Below, piece after piece: positions 4,175 to 27,287 of a stretch of 64,000 nt of DNA. This DNA is from Planococcus maritimus (GTDB lineage: Bacteria > Bacillota > Bacilli > Bacillales_A > Planococcaceae), in the NCBI RefSeq assembly GCF_001687625.2, contig NZ_CP016538.2:1766501-1830500 (forward strand). Direction: 5' to 3'. Both the position numbers and the translations under genes were made by a program. Below the pieces are notes generated by a model that was given only the letters and a program-made list of their open reading frames with translations, did not search any database and was not told where the DNA came from. Each line of letters starts with the position of its first letter. Position 1 is the first letter of the stretch.

Positions 4175-4276
4175 GCAATTCCCTCCATTATTAGTAACAT
4201 CATAACAAAAACATCTCGTATAAGAAAAACTTTAAGAATACCATATGTCTAGAAGCAAGTGGGCGCATGAAAAAAA

Positions 4277-4298
4277 AACCGTTATGATGATAACGGTT
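4277..4298 (-). terminator. Rho-independent terminator after ypjP
   Basis: Eight-base stem AACCGTTA/TAACGGTT with a six-base loop; read on the minus strand it is followed by a run of T. It abuts the ypjP stop codon and separates ypjP from thyA. Confidence 0.85.
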
Positions 4299-4892
4299 TC
4301 AGGAAAGCCATTTAGGCGGAGTATTTTTGGACCAGTAGATATCCCCGATGCTGATGTGTCTCTGGTACTCGTCGCTTGCCAAATGGTAATGGAAATTGAA
4401 CGAATAGCCTTCGAGCGGTTTTTTCTCTGTGCGCACATGGAAGCGGATTTCATCTTGCCCGCTATCTTTGTCGTAAACATGGAAAATTTTCTCGGCATGG
4501 TCGCCGGATGGTTTTTCGGAAATCGTCAAATTACGCAATCTGTCTTTGTCGTATGCAGCCAGTTCCGTGTCGATGACGTTCTGGATCGTCGGCAAAATGC
4601 GCGTACGGAATTCCGAATCGATCACTGGCCCGATGCGCGAGCCGAATTTTATGTAAGACTGCTCTTCAGCAGCTTGGCGGAAATCGGCTAAAATTGAATC
4701 CGTCGTTACATAATATTCTTCTGGGTCAATCCATTCAATTGTGTACTGTTTCGTATCACCTTGGCTTGCATGTGATTTCGGCTCCCCTTTTTCATCGAGC
4801 AAGGATTCCCAAATCATATGGTTCGGTGTAATGGCGCCCAGTGTCAGGACCGCTACTACGACCATCAAGGATTTTTGCCACCAGCTTTTCAC
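4299..4892 (-). CDS. ypjP: YpjP family protein
   Basis: About 197 residues with one N-terminal hydrophobic segment (near residues 5-22, MVVVAVLTLG) that could be a signal peptide or anchor, then a soluble region with many acidic residues and a conserved-looking C-terminus (HYHLASDEYQRHISIGDIYWSKNTPP in two parts). The location beside thyA/dfrA and the size match B. subtilis YpjP, whose function I do not know. Start choice: GTG 4892 lies five bases after AAGGTGAT; ATG 4898 is the alternative but would place the ribosome site immediately against the start. Transcribed alone and ended by its own terminator. Confidence 0.75.
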   Translation of the reverse strand: MKSWWQKSLMVVVAVLTLGAITPNHMIWESLLDEKGEPKSHASQGDTKQYTIEWIDPEEYYVTTDSILADFRQAAEEQSYIKFGSRIGPVIDSEFRTRILPTIQNVIDTELAAYDKDRLRNLTISEKPSGDHAEKIFHVYDKDSGQDEIRFHVRTEKKPLEGYSFNFHYHLASDEYQRHISIGDIYWSKNTPPKWLS

Positions 4893-18968: not shown

Positions 18969-18985
18969 AAATTGAAATAGCAAAA

Positions 18986-19008
18986 GACCCAGGAATTTTT
19001 CCTGGGTC
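18986..19008. terminator. Bidirectional terminator
   Basis: GACCCAGG/CCTGGGTC stem extended by AA/TT, followed by TTCTTTTT on the plus strand and by TTTTG on the minus strand, between the cold-shock gene and the converging papain-like gene. Confidence 0.88.
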
Positions 19009-19022
19009 TTCTTTTTATGCAT

Positions 19023-20987
19023 TCACGACCATGTATAAGTCTGGCCCCAGCTTTCACGGGCTAGTTTTTCAACTTGCTCTACATCACTTTCTTCTACCAT
19101 ATACGTATCGCCTTGTTCGTAAGGATTGTAATGGAATGCATACATCCTCGCGACAAATTGGTGGAATGGCAAGGAAGATTCGCCTTCGAGTTCGCCGTTT
19201 CCAGTGACACTCGTTTCGATTCCCTGCCCCCAGTTCTGGCCGCTGTCATTGTTCGGGTTGTAGAAGTAAATGCGGTACTCCTCATCCGGGTCTTCCGCCA
19301 CGCGCTGGATCGAAACTGCATGGAGACCCAGCAACTTGCCGTGCACATTGGTAATGTAAATGCCTACAGGGTTTGGATAAATCATTTCATAGCCTTCGTT
19401 GTACTCTGGATGATGCGTCGCATAGAACAAGCGGACGAACGCGTCATAATCTGTCACAAAGCCAGTTAGCGGATCGATGATATTGGCAAATCCGCGCGGG
19501 ATCCATTCGCCATAGAACTCAGGGTTTACCCATTTATGGCCATCTTCGCCGCGCAGGAAAGTTTTCTTCATCATTTCGTTATAAATTTTATCCAAATGCG
19601 GAACGAGGACGCTCGACACCGGATCTAGTTCGTGATGGATCTCTGCCGCGACGCCGTCTTCAATGACATTCGAATGTACTTCCTCGCCTTCGAAGATCAT
19701 GTCGATGTCGTTTTCACGCACTGCACGCGCGACGTAATCGAGCAGCTGGGAAATGCCGTGCTGCGCCCATAAGCTGATGGCACGCGCCGATTGGCAGGTT
19801 GGGTTCAAGCCTTGACCGATACCAAGCGGCTGGCCAAGAACCGAGATGACGCCCCCAATAAGGACACCATTTCCCGATAGCCCGCCTGTGCGGAATTCAG
19901 GGCGTAAAATCCGTTTTTTCACTTCCGGACGAATATCGATATCAAACAACCTGCGGATGCCCGGAATAATCGGATCCTGCGTCAATACGCCGCGGTCAAG
20001 CATGCGCGACAAACCATAAATGACACGGCTCGTCTGCGGGTAGACCGCAAAATGAATCATATCCTGCACCAGTTCCTGATTAGCGTTAAAGCTCGCTACG
20101 CCCATTTCGGATAAGTCCAAAAATTCCGGAATGAGTTCCGGTTTGCTTCTATTGATAAAGCGCAGGTAGATGGCCGCAATTGGTGCGACAAGACCTGTTT
20201 TGTTCATAGAAGCTGCATAGTCGTGGGCTTCCTGCTTGAGCGTTGCATCATCTGCGCTGACCAATTTTTTCCGGTAAGCTTTCAAGTCTGGTTCTTGTTC
20301 ACTCAAGGGTGTAGGTGTAGTAACCGCTTTCTCAAAATATTGCAAGGTATCTTTTGTTTGGCCGTCGATGTCCTCGTCAACCATTTGTGTTGCCGCATCG
20401 ATCATGGAGACGATGCGGTCCACCATGATTGGCCGCTGGACCGTCAGACGTTCGATTTCTCCCACGAGTTTTTGTGCTACTGCACGATAAGACAATTTGT
20501 CGCCCAGAAAACGGAAAAGGCGTTCGCCGCGCTCAAGATGCGCTCCGCCTCCTTCGACGCGGGCTTCCTCAGTCTCTGCCGGGAACAATAGATCCAAATT
20601 CAAAGCCAAGACTTCATTCAAAAAAGCGCTAGCTTCTTCCGGCGACACTTTTTCGTGTGTATAGTGGGCTTCTGAAATCGACAACATGCGCAATTCGCTC
20701 AATAGTTCGACCACCGAATTGACGCCTTTCAGATGAAGCGAACCGCCAACAAAGGCCGGTTCCAAGTTTTCTGCTTCCGCCCATGGGCCACCATTGAAGA
20801 CGCCGGCTTTGTCGAAATTAGCCGCATGCTCATAAAGCATTGCCAATCCTTCGTCGGTCCCTGCCAGTTCTGTCGCCAGCTGGAATACTTCCGTCTGGTA
20901 CATGCTTTTGGCAAACGGCTTTGCCTCTTCAAGCGTTCGAAGCGCTTGGCTGAATTTTTCATTTAAAGTTGATGCTTCAGTCGCCAT
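19023..20987 (-). CDS. 654-aa protein with papain-like Gln-Cys-His-Asn residues
   Basis: I do not recognise a named family. Residues 380-410 read QPLGIGQGLNPTCQSARAIS in part: Gln392 lies six residues before Cys398, the same spacing as Gln19 and Cys25 of papain. His556 lies in LLGLHAVSI and Asn577/Asn579-580 in YFYNPNND about 21 residues later, completing a Cys-His-Asn order in a predicted beta-rich C-terminal part. The first ~350 residues are mostly helical and of unknown fold. No signal peptide or membrane span, so cytosolic. GGAGG ribosome site before ATG 20987. It follows an ATP-grasp gene by 18 bases. Inference: a hydrolase or transferase acting on the bond the ligase makes; transglutaminase-like activity is an alternative. 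Confidence 0.6.
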   Translation of the reverse strand: MATEASTLNEKFSQALRTLEEAKPFAKSMYQTEVFQLATELAGTDEGLAMLYEHAANFDKAGVFNGGPWAEAENLEPAFVGGSLHLKGVNSVVELLSELRMLSISEAHYTHEKVSPEEASAFLNEVLALNLDLLFPAETEEARVEGGGAHLERGERLFRFLGDKLSYRAVAQKLVGEIERLTVQRPIMVDRIVSMIDAATQMVDEDIDGQTKDTLQYFEKAVTTPTPLSEQEPDLKAYRKKLVSADDATLKQEAHDYAASMNKTGLVAPIAAIYLRFINRSKPELIPEFLDLSEMGVASFNANQELVQDMIHFAVYPQTSRVIYGLSRMLDRGVLTQDPIIPGIRRLFDIDIRPEVKKRILRPEFRTGGLSGNGVLIGGVISVLGQPLGIGQGLNPTCQSARAISLWAQHGISQLLDYVARAVRENDIDMIFEGEEVHSNVIEDGVAAEIHHELDPVSSVLVPHLDKIYNEMMKKTFLRGEDGHKWVNPEFYGEWIPRGFANIIDPLTGFVTDYDAFVRLFYATHHPEYNEGYEMIYPNPVGIYITNVHGKLLGLHAVSIQRVAEDPDEEYRIYFYNPNNDSGQNWGQGIETSVTGNGELEGESSLPFHQFVARMYAFHYNPYEQGDTYMVEESDVEQVEKLARESWGQTYTWS

Positions 20988-21005
20988 TGATAGACCTCCA
21001 GATGT

Positions 21006-22232
21006 TTAATGGTAAAAATCGTAGTTCTCATAAGTTTTCAGCAATTCTTCCATCCGGTCGCTATCGTCGCCAAAAAAGAACAAGGTGCCGTAATGATTGC
21101 CGAAGCCGACGCGTTCCGCTACTTTGGACGTAACTGGGATGAACAAATCATGCTTTTCAAAATATGGGTTGTTTTTCAGTTCAGCTGGAATGTCCAATTT
21201 CTCGATCAAGCGGACACGCGGATACACCATTAGGCTGCCAGCATAGCCTTTGGCAGATGTAACTTCCTCTGGGAAGAATTCTTCCAATTGTTCTGGCGTC
21301 GTATCCGGGTCGCTGCACAGGATCTGCGCCTGGAAGGCATTAAATCCGTATGCGCGTTCGATCAAATCGAAAATGTGGCCGCCTGGTACACGCGCTGCCA
21401 CTTCCCCGAAATTCAAGGTGCCATCATGGGATATAAAGTATTCCGGATGGATAACGCCGTATTTGATCTCGAACGAATCAATCAGTTTTTGAATCTGTTC
21501 TTTAATTTGTGGGCGCCATTCCTCAAGCGCTGGGGATGCTGGCACGAAATTGGAATGCCCGAGTTTAACGTATTCGGTGATATTGAGGAATTTGATTTCC
21601 CCGTTATGCACGAACACTTCACAAGAAAATTCCTGCCCGTCCAAATGGCTTTCCATCAAGTACGGGAATTCCTGTACTTCAATCTTGTCAATGTCATTCG
21701 CGTCTTGGATCATCATATGACCGACCGTGCCCGCTTTGTTCAACGGCTTAATATGGATCGGATCGTTGGTGTCTCCGTCTATTTTGATCAATGCATCATT
21801 GACGCGCTTCAAGAAGCGGTGGATGTCATCTTTCGAATAAGCTTCCTCGAAGACGCCGACTTTAATGCCCGACATTTGCGCTTTGCGTTTCATCAAGCCT
21901 TTATCGCGCAGCAATAAGGACCGGTTAAATACTCGGGGGTCATCGAAAAAGCGTGCGTTTAAGACTCCTGCCCACTCCACGGTTTCTTCGTATATCGGCA
22001 CGGACAGTTTAACGCCCATTTCATCGAGCCGCTTGTACAACTCATCGGACCCTTCGTTCAACCGGTCGAAATCCCATGGGATAAAGTCAATCTCATGTTC
22101 TTTCGCAAAGCTGACGAAATCCGGTGGCCCGACTACAACATATGGCCTGTCCAATTTGTCCATCGCTTCAATCGCTGGAATGCTCCAGCCTAAAATAGCA
22201 GTCTTTTTTGGTATCGTGTTCTCTTCTGTCAT
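21006..22232 (-). CDS. ATP-grasp ligase
   Basis: 408 residues from ATG 22232, preceded by AAAGGAG. An N-terminal Rossmann-like region (TAILGWSIPAIEAMDKLDRP) precedes the ATP-grasp fold: Lys162 in IHIKPLNKAG, acceptor-type acidic stretch DGQEFSCEVFV (~199-208), and LNFGEVAARVPGGH (~273-286) with Glu277 and Arg281, the metal- and phosphate-binding signature of amino-acid/peptide-type carboxylate-amine ligases. Its substrates are unknown; family members join a carboxylate to an amine via acyl phosphate. A promoter lies directly upstream and the papain-like gene directly downstream, indicating a two-gene operon with a shared substrate or product. Confidence 0.82.
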   Translation of the reverse strand: MTEENTIPKKTAILGWSIPAIEAMDKLDRPYVVVGPPDFVSFAKEHEIDFIPWDFDRLNEGSDELYKRLDEMGVKLSVPIYEETVEWAGVLNARFFDDPRVFNRSLLLRDKGLMKRKAQMSGIKVGVFEEAYSKDDIHRFLKRVNDALIKIDGDTNDPIHIKPLNKAGTVGHMMIQDANDIDKIEVQEFPYLMESHLDGQEFSCEVFVHNGEIKFLNITEYVKLGHSNFVPASPALEEWRPQIKEQIQKLIDSFEIKYGVIHPEYFISHDGTLNFGEVAARVPGGHIFDLIERAYGFNAFQAQILCSDPDTTPEQLEEFFPEEVTSAKGYAGSLMVYPRVRLIEKLDIPAELKNNPYFEKHDLFIPVTSKVAERVGFGNHYGTLFFFGDDSDRMEELLKTYENYDFYH

Positions 22233-22262: not shown

Positions 22263-22290
22263 AGTATACAGTTTATTATTACCTAATCAA
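22263..22290 (-). promoter_or_regulatory. Sigma-A promoter for the ATP-grasp operon
   Basis: Minus strand TTGATT, 16 bases, TATACT, about 25 bases before the ribosome site of the ATP-grasp gene. Confidence 0.7.
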
Positions 22291-22340
22291 ATGGGGATAA
22301 ACCTTAGCCTTGGTAACTGAGGAAAATTTCCACAAAAAAA

Positions 22341-22376
22341 CCGTGACGGCAGAACTGGAAATTTCTGCTGTCACGG
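22341..22376 (-). terminator. Terminator after the zinc-finger gene
   Basis: CCGTGACNGCAGAA-type hairpin (CCGTGAC/GTCACGG) with seven T following on the minus strand. It separates the zinc-finger gene from the ATP-grasp operon promoter. Confidence 0.85.
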
Positions 22377-22386
22377 GAGTAGGATT

Positions 22387-22584
22387 TTATTTAGTACCTG
22401 TGCCAAATTTATTTAATTCTTGTCCCAAAAACTGCAATTGGGTACCGACCGTGCATTCACTGATGCAAAAGCGGTGCGCCGCTGTTTTCCCTTCGTCCTT
22501 GCGGAGTTGGGCTTTGACAAAGCAGCCTTCGCAATACGTATTGAGCATTTCATCTATTTCGTTGATGATGGATACTTTTTTCAT
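22387..22584 (-). CDS. Small zinc-finger domain protein (65 aa)
   Basis: 65 residues from ATG 22584, six bases after GGAGGG. Cysteines appear in two pairs: TYCEGCF and HRFCISECTVG, with a nearby His, forming a probable zinc site. The pattern matches a family of short Bacilli zinc-finger proteins annotated only by structure. An in-frame ATG eight codons upstream exists but lacks a ribosome site. The remainder is helical (KVSIINEIDEMLNTY). Function unknown; a protein-interaction or regulatory role is plausible. Transcribed alone, away from ypdP, with its own terminator. Confidence 0.75.
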   Translation of the reverse strand: MKKVSIINEIDEMLNTYCEGCFVKAQLRKDEGKTAAHRFCISECTVGTQLQFLGQELNKFGTGTK

Positions 22585-22726
22585 TCGGGTCCCTCCGCAA
22601 AATGTCATTCTATTATTCTACTATGAATTTGTTTTTTTCTGCAACACTCGGTATACTGGCTTGGGACATTTTCGTCCTGTAGCGGTTCGAAACTTCCCGC
22701 TCTACCAAAACTAAGGAGGAAGCAGT

Positions 22727-23422
22727 TTGTTTAATGAATTTTTAGGGCTCGGCTTCGCCCTCTTCAATTTTGTGTTATTGCTCATCATGTATAAAGTATT
22801 TGGCAAAACCGGGCTTTTCGCCTGGGTCGCGTTCGCCACGATCCTAGCCAATATCCAAGTGACGAAAACGATCGAAATCATCGGATTAACCGCCACGCTC
22901 GGCAATAGTTTATATGCCTCGACATTCCTTGCGACCGATATCCTCAATGAAAAATACGGCAAGAAAGAAGCGAAAAAAGCGGTCTGGCTTGGATTTTCTT
23001 CCTTGCTGATTATGGTCATCACGATGCAATTCGGGCTTCAATTCATTCCGGCGGAAAGCGATTTTGCACACGACGCATTAGAGACAGTCTTCGGGCTGGT
23101 GCCGCAGATTGCCATCGCCAGCATGATTGCTTACCTGCTCGCTCAGCATATTGACGTCATCGTCTTTTCTGCTTTGCGGAAAATCTTTCCGAAAGACAAT
23201 CAATTCTGGATTCGTAATAACGGCTCGACCTTGCTTAGCCAATTGATCGATACCTTGATCTTCACATCAATTGCCTTTTTTGGCGTCTTTCCGTTTGATG
23301 TCTGGATCCAGATTTTCATTTCGACTTACGTCTTAAAATTTATCGTCTCAGTCCTCGATACACCTTTTGGTTATCTTGCGAAGAAAATCACCCCACTCGA
23401 TGAAAAGGAGGACGCGCGATGA
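22727..23422 (+). CDS. ypdP: Queuosine precursor transporter (VUT family, YpdP)
   Basis: 231 residues with about six membrane helices. The region LYASTFLATDILNEKYG is the signature of the vitamin uptake/YhhQ family that imports queuine precursors (preQ0/preQ1). Start is TTG 22727, six bases after AGGAGGA; no ATG in a suitable place exists. The stop overlaps the ypeP start in an ATGA arrangement, an organisation like ypdP-ypdQ/ypeP in B. subtilis. Transport of the precursor is inferred from family; no energy-coupling partner is in the window. Confidence 0.88.
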   Translation: MFNEFLGLGFALFNFVLLLIMYKVFGKTGLFAWVAFATILANIQVTKTIEIIGLTATLGNSLYASTFLATDILNEKYGKKEAKKAVWLGFSSLLIMVITMQFGLQFIPAESDFAHDALETVFGLVPQIAIASMIAYLLAQHIDVIVFSALRKIFPKDNQFWIRNNGSTLLSQLIDTLIFTSIAFFGVFPFDVWIQIFISTYVLKFIVSVLDTPFGYLAKKITPLDEKEDAR

Positions 23423-25756: not shown

Positions 25757-26260
25757 TCATTTCAATAGCTTCTTCACCATCAACAATTCATCGATGTAAC
25801 GGCTTCCTGCCTTTTGGGCATTCGGCGTCGTGCCAATGCGCTCGAAGCCGGAGCGTTCGTAAAAACGGACCGCGCGTGGGTTGGCGGAATTCACAGCCAG
25901 TTCAAGCTGTTCAAGCCCCTCCCATTCAACAGCAAACGCCAGCAAATGATCCAATAGCTTGGACGCAACTCCTGTACCTCTCGCTTCTTGCGCTGCATAA
26001 ACGGCAAGTACTTCGGCTCGGTGGCCGGTCTTCTTACCTGACAGCCTGAGCAGCGTCATCACGGCGAGCAGTCGGCCCTCGTCATATGCACCGAATGTCA
26101 CAGCTGAAGGATTGCCCAGATTTTTTGCCGTCGCACTTACTGGCCTGGCGCTTGCTTCATTGAAATCAGTCGAAAATGCATCGGCATCGGTCTGCAACGC
26201 CGTCAAGCGAAGCTCCCGGTACTGATCGGCATCGTCTTGCGTTAACCGCCGAAATTCCAT
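25757..26260 (-). CDS. GNAT family N-acetyltransferase
   Basis: 167 residues from ATG 26260, six bases after GAGAGGGTG. The acetyl-CoA loop AAQEARGTGVASKLLDHLL (motif A, R-x-x-G-x-G/A pattern) and the motif B region NSANPRAVRFYERSGFERIG are both clear. Substrate unknown. It is the last gene of a three-gene set with an S66 peptidase and a 69-residue membrane protein; the combination of an LD-carboxypeptidase/MccF-like enzyme and an acetyltransferase is also seen in resistance to peptide-nucleotide antibiotics, but here that is only a suggestion. Confidence 0.85.
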   Translation of the reverse strand: MEFRRLTQDDADQYRELRLTALQTDADAFSTDFNEASARPVSATAKNLGNPSAVTFGAYDEGRLLAVMTLLRLSGKKTGHRAEVLAVYAAQEARGTGVASKLLDHLLAFAVEWEGLEQLELAVNSANPRAVRFYERSGFERIGTTPNAQKAGSRYIDELLMVKKLLK

Positions 26261-26276
26261 TGTCTGCACCCTCTCT

Positions 26277-27287
26277 TTAACGAAGCTCTTGGACGATGCG
26301 CGCTTTGCCGTCTTCAACATGGAAAGTCGCATTCGCCCCGTTGACTAAAATTACTTGCGGTGGCTGATGGCCGATATCGGCATCGTAGACGACAGGAATT
26401 TTCAGCTGCTCTGCGAGTTCCTGATACACCATCTCAGCAGTATAGCCTTGTACCGGATCGTTCGCTTCGCTTCTGCCAAAGACCATACCCGAACAATTAT
26501 CGAACCAGCCTGCATATTTCATTTGCAGCAAGCTGCGCTTTAAATCTGTCGTATTCATGTCGCAGTTTTCCAAAAACCAAATGACTGGTTCACCCGGAAT
26601 AAATTTCTTTCGAAAAGCTTCGATACCGCCGTAAGGAGTCCCAATCAGGTGGCGAATGACGTCAATGCATCCACCTAGTAGCCGGCCTTCTAGCCGTTCT
26701 GCATGCCCTGATACGGTTTTCCAAACAGTTGGTTCCGTCAAATGGAAGACGTGAGGTGTCGGCTTGTCGTGGTCCCAAGTTTTTTGGTAGCGTTCCGACG
26801 AAACCTGTTTAATGACCGCGCCTTTTGTCAACGCAAGTACGTCCGCCCAACGCGCAGTGGTCGGGTCTGTTTCCGTGCCGCGTAAATCGACAATATTGGT
26901 ACCATGAGCTGTCGCAATTCCGGTATTTAAGGTGATCGCCAATGACAACAGGCTGATATCCGAATACCCAAGCAGCCATTTCGGCGTCAGTTTCTGGAAA
27001 TCAAGGTGTTCCATCAATTCGAATAGTAACTCCCCGCCCCATGGAGGAATGATGGCATCAACTCTCGAATCACGCCAGATGTTAACCAATTCCTTAGCAC
27101 GAACCGCTGCAGGAGATGACTTAGCTGCCAGTTGGCTCCAAGTATTGGGGCTGCTTTTGACGGCATAGCCTTGCTTCTCCAACTGACTGATTGCCGTTTC
27201 CAGTACGTGATGCAATTCTTTTGGCACACCAGAAGACGGTGCTGTGACGCCGATGGTTTTTAATGCTCGATCGGGATAACGGATCAA
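26277..27287 (-). CDS. S66 family peptidase (LD-carboxypeptidase/MccF-like)
   Basis: 336 residues from TTG 27287 with GGAGGAGAG upstream. S66 features: N-terminal IGVTAPSSGV, the serine nucleophile in LLGYSDIS, and the C-terminal DADIGHQPP carrying the catalytic His; a Glu in the LENCD region completes the triad. Members either cleave the L,D bond in cell-wall tetrapeptides (LdcA) or destroy microcin C-like drugs (MccF). The extra length and the WDHDKP segment near residue 170 look more MccF-like, but I cannot decide. Genes for a small membrane protein (upstream) and a GNAT enzyme (downstream) flank it within 20 bases. Confidence 0.85.
   Translation of the reverse strand: MIRYPDRALKTIGVTAPSSGVPKELHHVLETAISQLEKQGYAVKSSPNTWSQLAAKSSPAAVRAKELVNIWRDSRVDAIIPPWGGELLFELMEHLDFQKLTPKWLLGYSDISLLSLAITLNTGIATAHGTNIVDLRGTETDPTTARWADVLALTKGAVIKQVSSERYQKTWDHDKPTPHVFHLTEPTVWKTVSGHAERLEGRLLGGCIDVIRHLIGTPYGGIEAFRKKFIPGEPVIWFLENCDMNTTDLKRSLLQMKYAGWFDNCSGMVFGRSEANDPVQGYTAEMVYQELAEQLKIPVVYDADIGHQPPQVILVNGANATFHVEDGKARIVQELR

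What the first reader, a model, noticed from the sequence alone, without database searches (positions are those of the whole stretch)
19023..22232. Operon pairing an ATP-grasp ligase with an unrecognised papain-like protein
Seen: a two-gene unit with its own promoter and terminator; the downstream protein (654 aa) has Gln392 six residues before Cys398, then His556 and Asn577, the papain order and Gln-Cys spacing, in a protein I cannot assign. Known: ATP-grasp ligases form amide bonds; papain-like amidases break them (e.g. glutathionylspermidine synthetase/amidase combines both). Inference: a dedicated make-and-break pair for an unknown amide-linked compound, a candidate undescribed system.
Basis: partly seen in the sequence, partly recalled or inferred. 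Interest (0 to 1): 0.75.

Follow-up and report, generated by a model that had tools for sequence, protein, structure and literature searches.

The report
Ligase and papain-fold enzyme operon
Bacteria of several phyla carry a two-gene unit, an amide-making ligase followed by an unnamed papain-fold enzyme, and its gene neighbours suggest that the pair works on a small molecule built from ornithine, possibly one that protects cells against salt stress.

The parts
21006..22232 (-). ATP-grasp amide ligase, 408 aa, first gene of the pair
   Evidence: PF13535 40.6 bits, found in 25 of 25 aligned homologues at E<=0.001; nearest solved structure is the L-amino acid ligase 4wd3 (E 2e-9 single sequence; 1.6e-12 profile)
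19023..20987 (-). 654-aa papain-fold protein, second gene of the pair
   Evidence: no family in Pfam, NCBIfam, PHROGs, PADLOC; 1926 homologues at E<=0.001 among 7996 scored candidates; AF2 model pLDDT 88.9, pTM 0.84
19941..20987 (-). N-terminal all-helical half (residues 1-349), fold not identified
   Evidence: DSSP of model; only weak, scattered matches to helical proteins in whole-model searches; not modelled alone
19026..19940 (-). C-terminal papain-like catalytic domain (residues 350-654)
19794..19796 (-). codon of Cys398, predicted nucleophile, N-terminus of helix 398-410
   Evidence: invariant 124/124
19812..19814 (-). codon of Gln392, predicted oxyanion-hole residue
   Evidence: invariant 124/124
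19320..19322 (-). codon of His556, in strand 552-565
   Evidence: invariant 124/124
19257..19259 (-). codon of Asn577, just after strand 571-576
   Evidence: invariant 124/124
20988..21005 (-). 18-nt junction between the two genes with a GGAGGT ribosome-binding site
   Evidence: sequence
22263..22290 (-). promoter-like site TTGATT-16-TATACT, 30 nt before the ATG; not above chance
18984..19010 (.). 12-pair terminator-like hairpin between the pair and a convergent cold-shock gene

Best explanation
The two genes are one biosynthetic module. SHOWN (by comparison): they occur together and side by side, and the second protein has a predicted papain-like catalytic domain with a complete, invariant Q-C-H-N set. 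INFERRED: (1) the ATP-grasp enzyme activates a carboxylate as an acyl phosphate and joins it to an amine, the likeliest carboxylate being that of ornithine or another diamino acid. In several lineages the operon makes that ornithine itself (argB/C/D/J), and N-acetyltransferase genes (AblB or other GNATs) beside it would acetylate an amino group of the same compound. (2) The papain-fold enzyme attacks the new amide with Cys398, forms a thioester, and either hydrolyses it (turnover or trimming) or passes the acyl group to a second amine (chain extension or amide exchange). (3) The end product is a small, charge-masked amide or peptide kept in the cytoplasm, most likely a compatible solute. My rough split for the papain-fold step is hydrolysis 0.45, acyl transfer 0.35, other 0.2.
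For: Strict pairing: the papain-like family in 36 of 249 genomes (E<=0.001) and the ligase family in 36 of 249 (E<=1e-80), same 36, with one ligase directly upstream of one papain-like gene in each by the printed coordinates; in relatives of the window 15 of 60 and 15 of 60, same 15, adjacent (all counts include the centre genome). Distance matrices of the two proteins over 54 cluster representatives correlate (r 0.74; best of 999 permutations 0.26). Fold. Ornithine genes: argB-argD-argC-argJ upstream on the same strand in a Bacteroidota genome (L168); argC-J-B-D right behind the pair in Ectobacillus funiculus (L036); argJ in L035; argC and argJ in L078; argD and argJ in L084; argC in L083. 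All but one of these genes pass an NCBIfam cut-off; the argD of L084 is cut by the contig end (280 of 410 bits). argJ is a second copy in G464 (L036) and G1285 (L035). AblB (TIGR03827, above cut-off in 3 of 3 scanned) beside the pair in 13 loci / 10 of 64 clusters; expectation for a single-copy gene in 64 windows of 17 kb about 0.27. Ectoine synthase about 50 bp behind the pair in L049, betaine dehydrogenases in L055, BCCT solute transporters within 1.5 kb in 6 loci / 3 clusters. ATP-grasp nearest to an L-amino acid ligase. N-acetyl-ornithine and N-acetyl-lysine solutes are reported for Halobacillus halophilus (PMC2412884, PMC3995056, passages) and N-epsilon-acetyl-lysine for Planococcus sp. 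VITP21 (PMC4685198, passage).
Confidence: 0.5

Rival explanations
1. Nitrogen store: the pair makes and breaks an ornithine-rich peptide or amide used as a nitrogen reserve, in the manner of cyanophycin synthetase and cyanophycinase.
For: Ligase plus predicted hydrolase; ornithine synthesis genes in some operons; sigma-54 activator genes close by in L078 and L083 and a similar frame in L093 (by eye), and sigma-54 often serves nitrogen control (general knowledge).
Against: AblB, ectoine synthase, betaine and BCCT genes fit osmoadaptation better; I noticed no second ligase for a polymer beside the pair, but did not search for one.
Confidence: 0.15
2. Antimetabolite: the pair builds a small peptide inhibitor and the linked argJ copy is a self-protection enzyme.
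For: argJ duplicated, one copy beside the pair, in G464 and G1285; mangotoxin, an oligopeptide, inhibits ornithine acetyltransferase (PMC3355146, abstract in the listing); an acyltransferase of the penicillin type (PF03417) stands near the pair in one group of loci.
Against: argB, argC and argD accompany argJ in L168 and L036, which looks like supply and not protection; the only transporters that I recognised among the recurrent neighbours are BCCT and YhhQ types (YhhQ by recall), not exporters; the pair is kept in many species of a genus.
Confidence: 0.1
3. Alternative amino-group protection in ornithine or lysine synthesis: the ATP-grasp enzyme attaches a protecting group to glutamate or a relative and the papain-fold enzyme removes it, as LysX/ArgX and LysK do with LysW.
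For: Ligase plus amidase around ArgB/C/D-type enzymes is the same logic.
Against: ArgJ, which supplies acetyl protection, is in the same operons, the ArgB proteins score far better as acetylglutamate kinase than as LysW-type kinase, and most copies of the pair have no ArgB/C/J nearby. No small carrier-protein gene was noticed, but none was searched for.
Confidence: 0.07
4. The papain-fold protein is a regulator or binding protein whose catalytic residues are kept for another reason, and the ligase alone is the enzyme.
For: Large helical N-terminal half; extra papain-like copies without a ligase beside them (12 of the 13 second copies, compared) occur in genomes that also hold the pair.
Against: Q, C, H and N are identical in all 124 distinct proteins, including 15 without the C-terminal tail, which is what a working thiol enzyme needs.
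Confidence: 0.1

Closest known systems
L-amino acid ligases (ATP-grasp; 4wd3; RizA and BacD/YwfE type)
   Same: Nearest solved relatives of the ligase by sequence; RizA makes dipeptides with N-terminal arginine (PMC9321006, passage), a basic amino acid like ornithine.
   Different: Only part of the protein aligns (profile positions 66-315, 50 bits); no papain-fold partner of RizA or BacD is known to me; that 4wd3 is RizA is from recall.
Papain-like cysteine enzymes, clan CA (calpain, staphopain, PCAT1 peptidase, cathepsins)
   Same: Order and spacing Q-C-H-N, predicted fold of residues 358-620.
   Different: No sequence match in the PDB at E<=10 except one unrelated hit; long helical N-terminal half; no Pfam family matches the window protein.
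Primitive phytochelatin synthase Alr0975 (2bu3)
   Different: Not found by sequence; substrate there is glutathione.
Glutathionylspermidine synthetase/amidase (Gsp)
   Same: An ATP-dependent amide ligase and a Cys amidase for one compound.
   Different: Different ligase and amidase families (neither matched); two separate genes here.
N-acetylglutaminylglutamine amide (NAGGN) osmolyte system
   Same: Logic of GNAT, ATP-grasp ligase and further amide chemistry for a solute.
   Different: No NAGGN model is among the hits of the two window proteins; asparagine synthase of L049 360 of 570 bits for TIGR03104 and M42 peptidase of L064 57 of 398 bits for TIGR03106.
N-epsilon-acetyl-beta-lysine synthesis (AblA/AblB)
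   Same: AblB-type acetyltransferase beside the pair in 10 of 64 clusters.
   Different: I recognised no AblA frame by eye among the neighbours of the eight loci printed, and made no search for it; that pathway needs no ligase.

Membership tests
Papain-like (clan CA) cysteine enzyme fold | Gln, then Cys at the start of a helix, His in a strand, Asn/Asp after the next strand | tested here: met
   order and secondary structure; all invariant 124/124
Papain-like (clan CA) cysteine enzyme fold | overall fold similarity to solved members | tested here: met
Papain-like (clan CA) cysteine enzyme fold | sequence match to a curated family of the clan | tested here: not met
   no Pfam family in the window protein and only stray hits in one or two of 35 homologues; so it is not a member of a named Pfam family
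Papain-like (clan CA) cysteine enzyme fold | catalytic Cys, His and Asn close in space | tested here: inconclusive
   model coordinates could not be read; only fold alignment and secondary structure
Papain-like (clan CA) cysteine enzyme fold | thiol-dependent catalysis | not testable with these tools
   needs enzyme assay
ATP-grasp ligase | ATP-grasp domain above curated cut-off | tested here: met
   PF13535 40.6 bits against 27; 25 of 25 homologues at E<=0.001
L-amino acid ligase (as a named NCBI family) | match above a curated cut-off | tested here: not met
   best model is PRK07206.1 (hypothetical protein), 42.6 bits against 302
NAGGN osmolyte trio | TIGR03104 amidotransferase and TIGR03106 peptidase above cut-off beside the ligase | tested here: not met
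   only the two candidates of L049 and L064 scanned
AblA/AblB acetyl-beta-lysine pathway | AblB above cut-off at the locus | tested here: met
   3 of 3 scanned neighbours above 205.1 bits; such neighbours at 10 of 64 clusters, not in the window genome
AblA/AblB acetyl-beta-lysine pathway | lysine 2,3-aminomutase AblA in the same genome | not tested
   no genome search was left
Glutathionylspermidine synthetase/amidase | Gsp synthetase and CHAP amidase domains | tested here: not met
   no such Pfam family in either protein

The most novel reading that the evidence does not exclude
An undescribed class of compatible solute (or other protectant): an ornithine-derived, omega-N-acetylated amide or dipeptide, in Bacteroidota perhaps with a D-residue from the operon's racemase, made by a ligase/papain-fold module shared by Bacillota, Bacteroidota, Pseudomonadota and other phyla. 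The papain-fold enzyme would be an acyl-transferring step of biosynthesis and not only an amidase.
Probability: 0.33. Interest if true: 0.82.

Novelty: new variant of a known kind. Interest (0 to 1): 0.62.

Why it matters
A family with at least 1926 detected members and no name turns out to be a probable thiol enzyme that, in the genomes searched, goes with one particular ligase. The arg, AblB and ectoine-synthase neighbours turn an open-ended make-and-break idea into a substrate guess that a mass spectrometer can test. If right, it would add a pathway to bacterial osmoadaptation and bear on two open points: which genes make N-acetyl-ornithine-type solutes in Bacillales, and what solitary EctC proteins do, which PMC5924519 (passages) calls unresolved.

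Tried and rejected
Phage or defence function: no PHROGs or PADLOC family at E<=0.01. Known Pfam family in distant members: scan of 35 homologues gave 11 families, each in one or two members, none consistent. Plasmid carriage: one plasmid record of 72,556, a Halomonas sp. PA16-9 1.83-Mb replicon, where the pair is adjacent. NAGGN membership: not met. The c2 acetyltransferase as a strict partner: 18 of 64 clusters, opposite strand, but a relative lies elsewhere in the window's genome next to a purD-like and an adenine-deaminase-like frame (names by recall), so c2 belongs to a wider family. The label NAGS that I gave to the L078 gene at 4258-4815 is from recall; it is a GNAT by Pfam but has no NCBIfam match at E<=1e-10.

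Gene calling: the 120 longer loci (80, 40) were read with a simple longest-frame picker; 117 entered the cluster counts and L084, L172 and L176 were dropped because no papain-like frame was picked. Several of the 117 are the same genome fetched twice; the 64 clusters merge these. Of the 17 loci first scored without an adjacent ligase, five have it beside the gene by other calls (L079, L083 and, in part, L087; L083 also; L173; L171 convergent). Twelve genomes that hold the other copies (G1209 and G1178 included) all hold the ligase gene (12 of 12); on which contig it lies was not followed up for most.

Papers: searches listed no paper whose title or shown abstract describes this pair; of the listed papers I saw passages of PMC10318531 (12 of 25 places), PMC4685198, PMC2412884, PMC1224877, PMC5924519, PMC3995056, PMC9321006 and PMC2922099 only. 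Only open-licence PMC papers are held, and the 2009 amidoligase survey (PMC3268129) was not, so prior mention cannot be excluded.
Full report
WHAT IS THERE. The window lies in a Planococcus chromosome (closest named genome listed P. citreus, 96% identity of the protein; genome handle and place). On the minus strand, 22232-21006 encodes a 408-aa ATP-grasp protein and 20987-19023 a 654-aa protein, 18 nt apart with a good ribosome-binding site. The first has PF13535 and its nearest solved relative is an L-amino acid ligase. The second has no Pfam, NCBIfam, PHROGs or PADLOC match and no solved relative by sequence (one unrelated hit at E 0.84). It has 1926 homologues at E<=0.001 among 7996 scored candidates; of the 120 listed, those that carry a name are called hypothetical or uncharacterized protein.

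CONSERVATION. Q392, C398, H556 and N577 are invariant in 40 of 40 rows of A1, in 35 of 35 of A2, which goes down to 32% identity and includes Bacteroidota, Gammaproteobacteria and short paralogues, and in 124 of 124 distinct proteins from the loci. C398 is the protein's only cysteine. Q399, D482, H484, N488, R562, N579, Q584, W586, E599 and E603 are equally strict, and N395, P396 and R402 are kept in 123 of 124, which suggests a specific site and not a broad protease (inference).

PAIRING. A profile of the 654-aa family hit 36 of 249 genomes in the order of Oceanobacillus, and a profile of the ligase family at E<=1e-80 hit 36 of 249. The two genome lists are the same, and by the printed coordinates a ligase lies directly upstream on the same strand of one papain-like gene in all 36. 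Thirteen of the 36 have a second papain-like gene; in one of these (G636) it too has a ligase, in twelve not. Among 60 relatives of the window genome both searches hit the same 15, adjacent. The counts include the centre genomes. The pair is patchy: 1 of 398 Bacillota genomes in one broad draw (the window's own), 4 of 296 in the phylum of L094 (Bacteroidota), 8 of 274 in the class of L089 (recorded as Gammaproteobacteria). Over 117 loci in 64 clusters (80% identity), 100 loci and 54 clusters had the ligase adjacent by automatic reading. Twelve genomes that hold copies first scored without a ligase all have a ligase gene. The distance matrices of the two proteins correlate at r 0.74 (best of 999 permutations 0.26).

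NEIGHBOURS. Clustering of all neighbouring frames put acetyltransferases on top: a 190-aa GNAT on the opposite strand upstream (18 of 64 clusters), AblB (10 of 64), then an alanine racemase directly behind the pair (7 clusters, 8 Bacteroidota loci). NCBIfam names the second TIGR03827 AblB above cut-off in 3 of 3 scanned and the racemase of L094 TIGR00492. Ornithine-synthesis genes follow. L168 has argB-argD-argC-argJ-ligase-papain-racemase on one strand. L036 (Ectobacillus funiculus) has ligase-papain-argC-argJ-argB-argD-paralogue. L035 (Neobacillus) has ligase-papain-argJ-paralogue. L078 has argC, a GNAT, argJ, a second GNAT, ligase, papain, and L084 has argD, GNAT, argJ, GNAT, ligase, papain. 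L083 has argC and two GNATs before the pair. The arg genes of L036 and L168, the argJ genes of L035, L078 and L084 and the argC genes of L078 and L083 pass NCBIfam cut-offs; the argD of L084 is cut by the contig end and reaches 280 of 410 bits. L094 has argC on the opposite strand 3.7 kb away. A gene present once per 4 Mb would be expected in 0.27 of 64 windows of 17 kb; argC was seen in 5 clusters (P about 1e-5) and AblB in 10 (P about 5e-13), on the simplifying assumption of independent clusters. In G464 (L036) and G1285 (L035) the linked argJ is one of two copies. In G939 (L168), G460 (L078) and G457 (L084) it is the only one found; G455 and G1286 have one each, not shown to be linked; the window genome has none. 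Other solute genes: an ectoine synthase about 50 bp behind the pair in L049, betaine-aldehyde and choline dehydrogenases behind it in L055, and BCCT transporters within 1.5 kb in 6 loci / 3 clusters (PF02028 in 4 of 4 scanned, one of them the more distant L037). With the neighbours counted (acetyltransferases, racemase, argB/C/J, ectoine synthase), 38 of 64 clusters have at least one and 26 have none.

READING. The constant core is a ligase and a papain-fold enzyme; the variable shell makes ornithine and acetylates amino groups. The simplest account is that the core builds and processes an amide of an ornithine-type diamino acid. Halobacillus halophilus is reported to accumulate N-epsilon-acetyl lysine and N-delta-acetyl ornithine (passages of PMC2412884 and PMC3995056; the latter calls them minor), and a Planococcus strain N-epsilon-acetyl lysine (passage of PMC4685198). 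Three of the seven Halobacillus loci (L055, L062, L064) carry AblB; H. halophilus itself was not examined. Solutes of the masked-peptide type exist (N-acetylglutaminylglutamine amide, passage of PMC1224877). Papain-fold transacylases in clusters for peptide-derived metabolites, several of which also have ATP-grasp ligases, have been proposed before for other families (passages of PMC2922099). The resemblance to a phytochelatin-synthase relative makes acyl transfer as credible as hydrolysis. For the window species the substrate supply is unknown, since neither ArgJ nor AblB above cut-off was found and the one acetyltransferase gene seen nearby (25757-26332) is 3.5 kb away.

VERDICT. Observation confirmed, pairing well supported, fold supported by prediction, substrate class moderately supported, product and direction of the second step open. 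The parts are known kinds of enzyme in a combination, and with a catalytic family, that I could not find described (searches, open-licence papers only).

Noticed in passing
L025:10813-12651, L026, L027, L028, L029, L034, L035, L036, L037, L040, L046, L059, L065, L071: A second, shorter papain-like paralogue of about 610 aa lies downstream of the pair in these Bacillaceae-type loci; 15 proteins without the C-terminal tail (short paralogues or cut frames) keep all four catalytic residues.
   Followed up: partly
L049:10005-10391: An ectoine synthase gene directly behind the pair in Oceanobacillus senegalensis, with AblB upstream and no ectA or ectB recognised beside it; the only such case among the loci.
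   Followed up: partly
L168:10053-11210, L094:9950-11107 and six more Bacteroidota loci: A stand-alone alanine racemase gene follows or overlaps the papain-like gene in 8 loci, hinting at a D-amino acid.
   Followed up: partly
L166:4842-6389, L175:5878-7938, L038, L044, L045, L070: BCCT-family solute transporter genes within 1.5 kb of the papain-like gene or its ligase (Pfam on L166, L175, L045).
   Followed up: partly
L153:11398-12450 and seven similar loci: A gene for an acyl-CoA:6-aminopenicillanic acid acyltransferase-like protein (PF03417) stands upstream on the opposite strand in 8 loci of 2 clusters.
   Followed up: no
L078:1572-3242, L083:3029-4477, L093:938-2176: Sigma-54 activator genes stand near the pair on the opposite strand; L078 and L083 by Pfam, L093 judged by eye.
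   Followed up: no
L202 (window genome C1:946380-946928): A relative (45% identity) of the pair-linked c2 acetyltransferase lies apart from the pair, next to a purD-like and an adenine-deaminase-like frame.
   Followed up: partly
window 22310-22714: A plus-strand frame between the pair and the YhhQ-like gene at 22727 recurs in related Planococcus loci (c55, 5 loci); it may be the shadow of a small minus-strand gene.
   Followed up: no
L203:6717-10052: The pair on a 1.83-Mb replicon of Halomonas sp. PA16-9, the only match among 72,556 plasmid records.
   Followed up: partly
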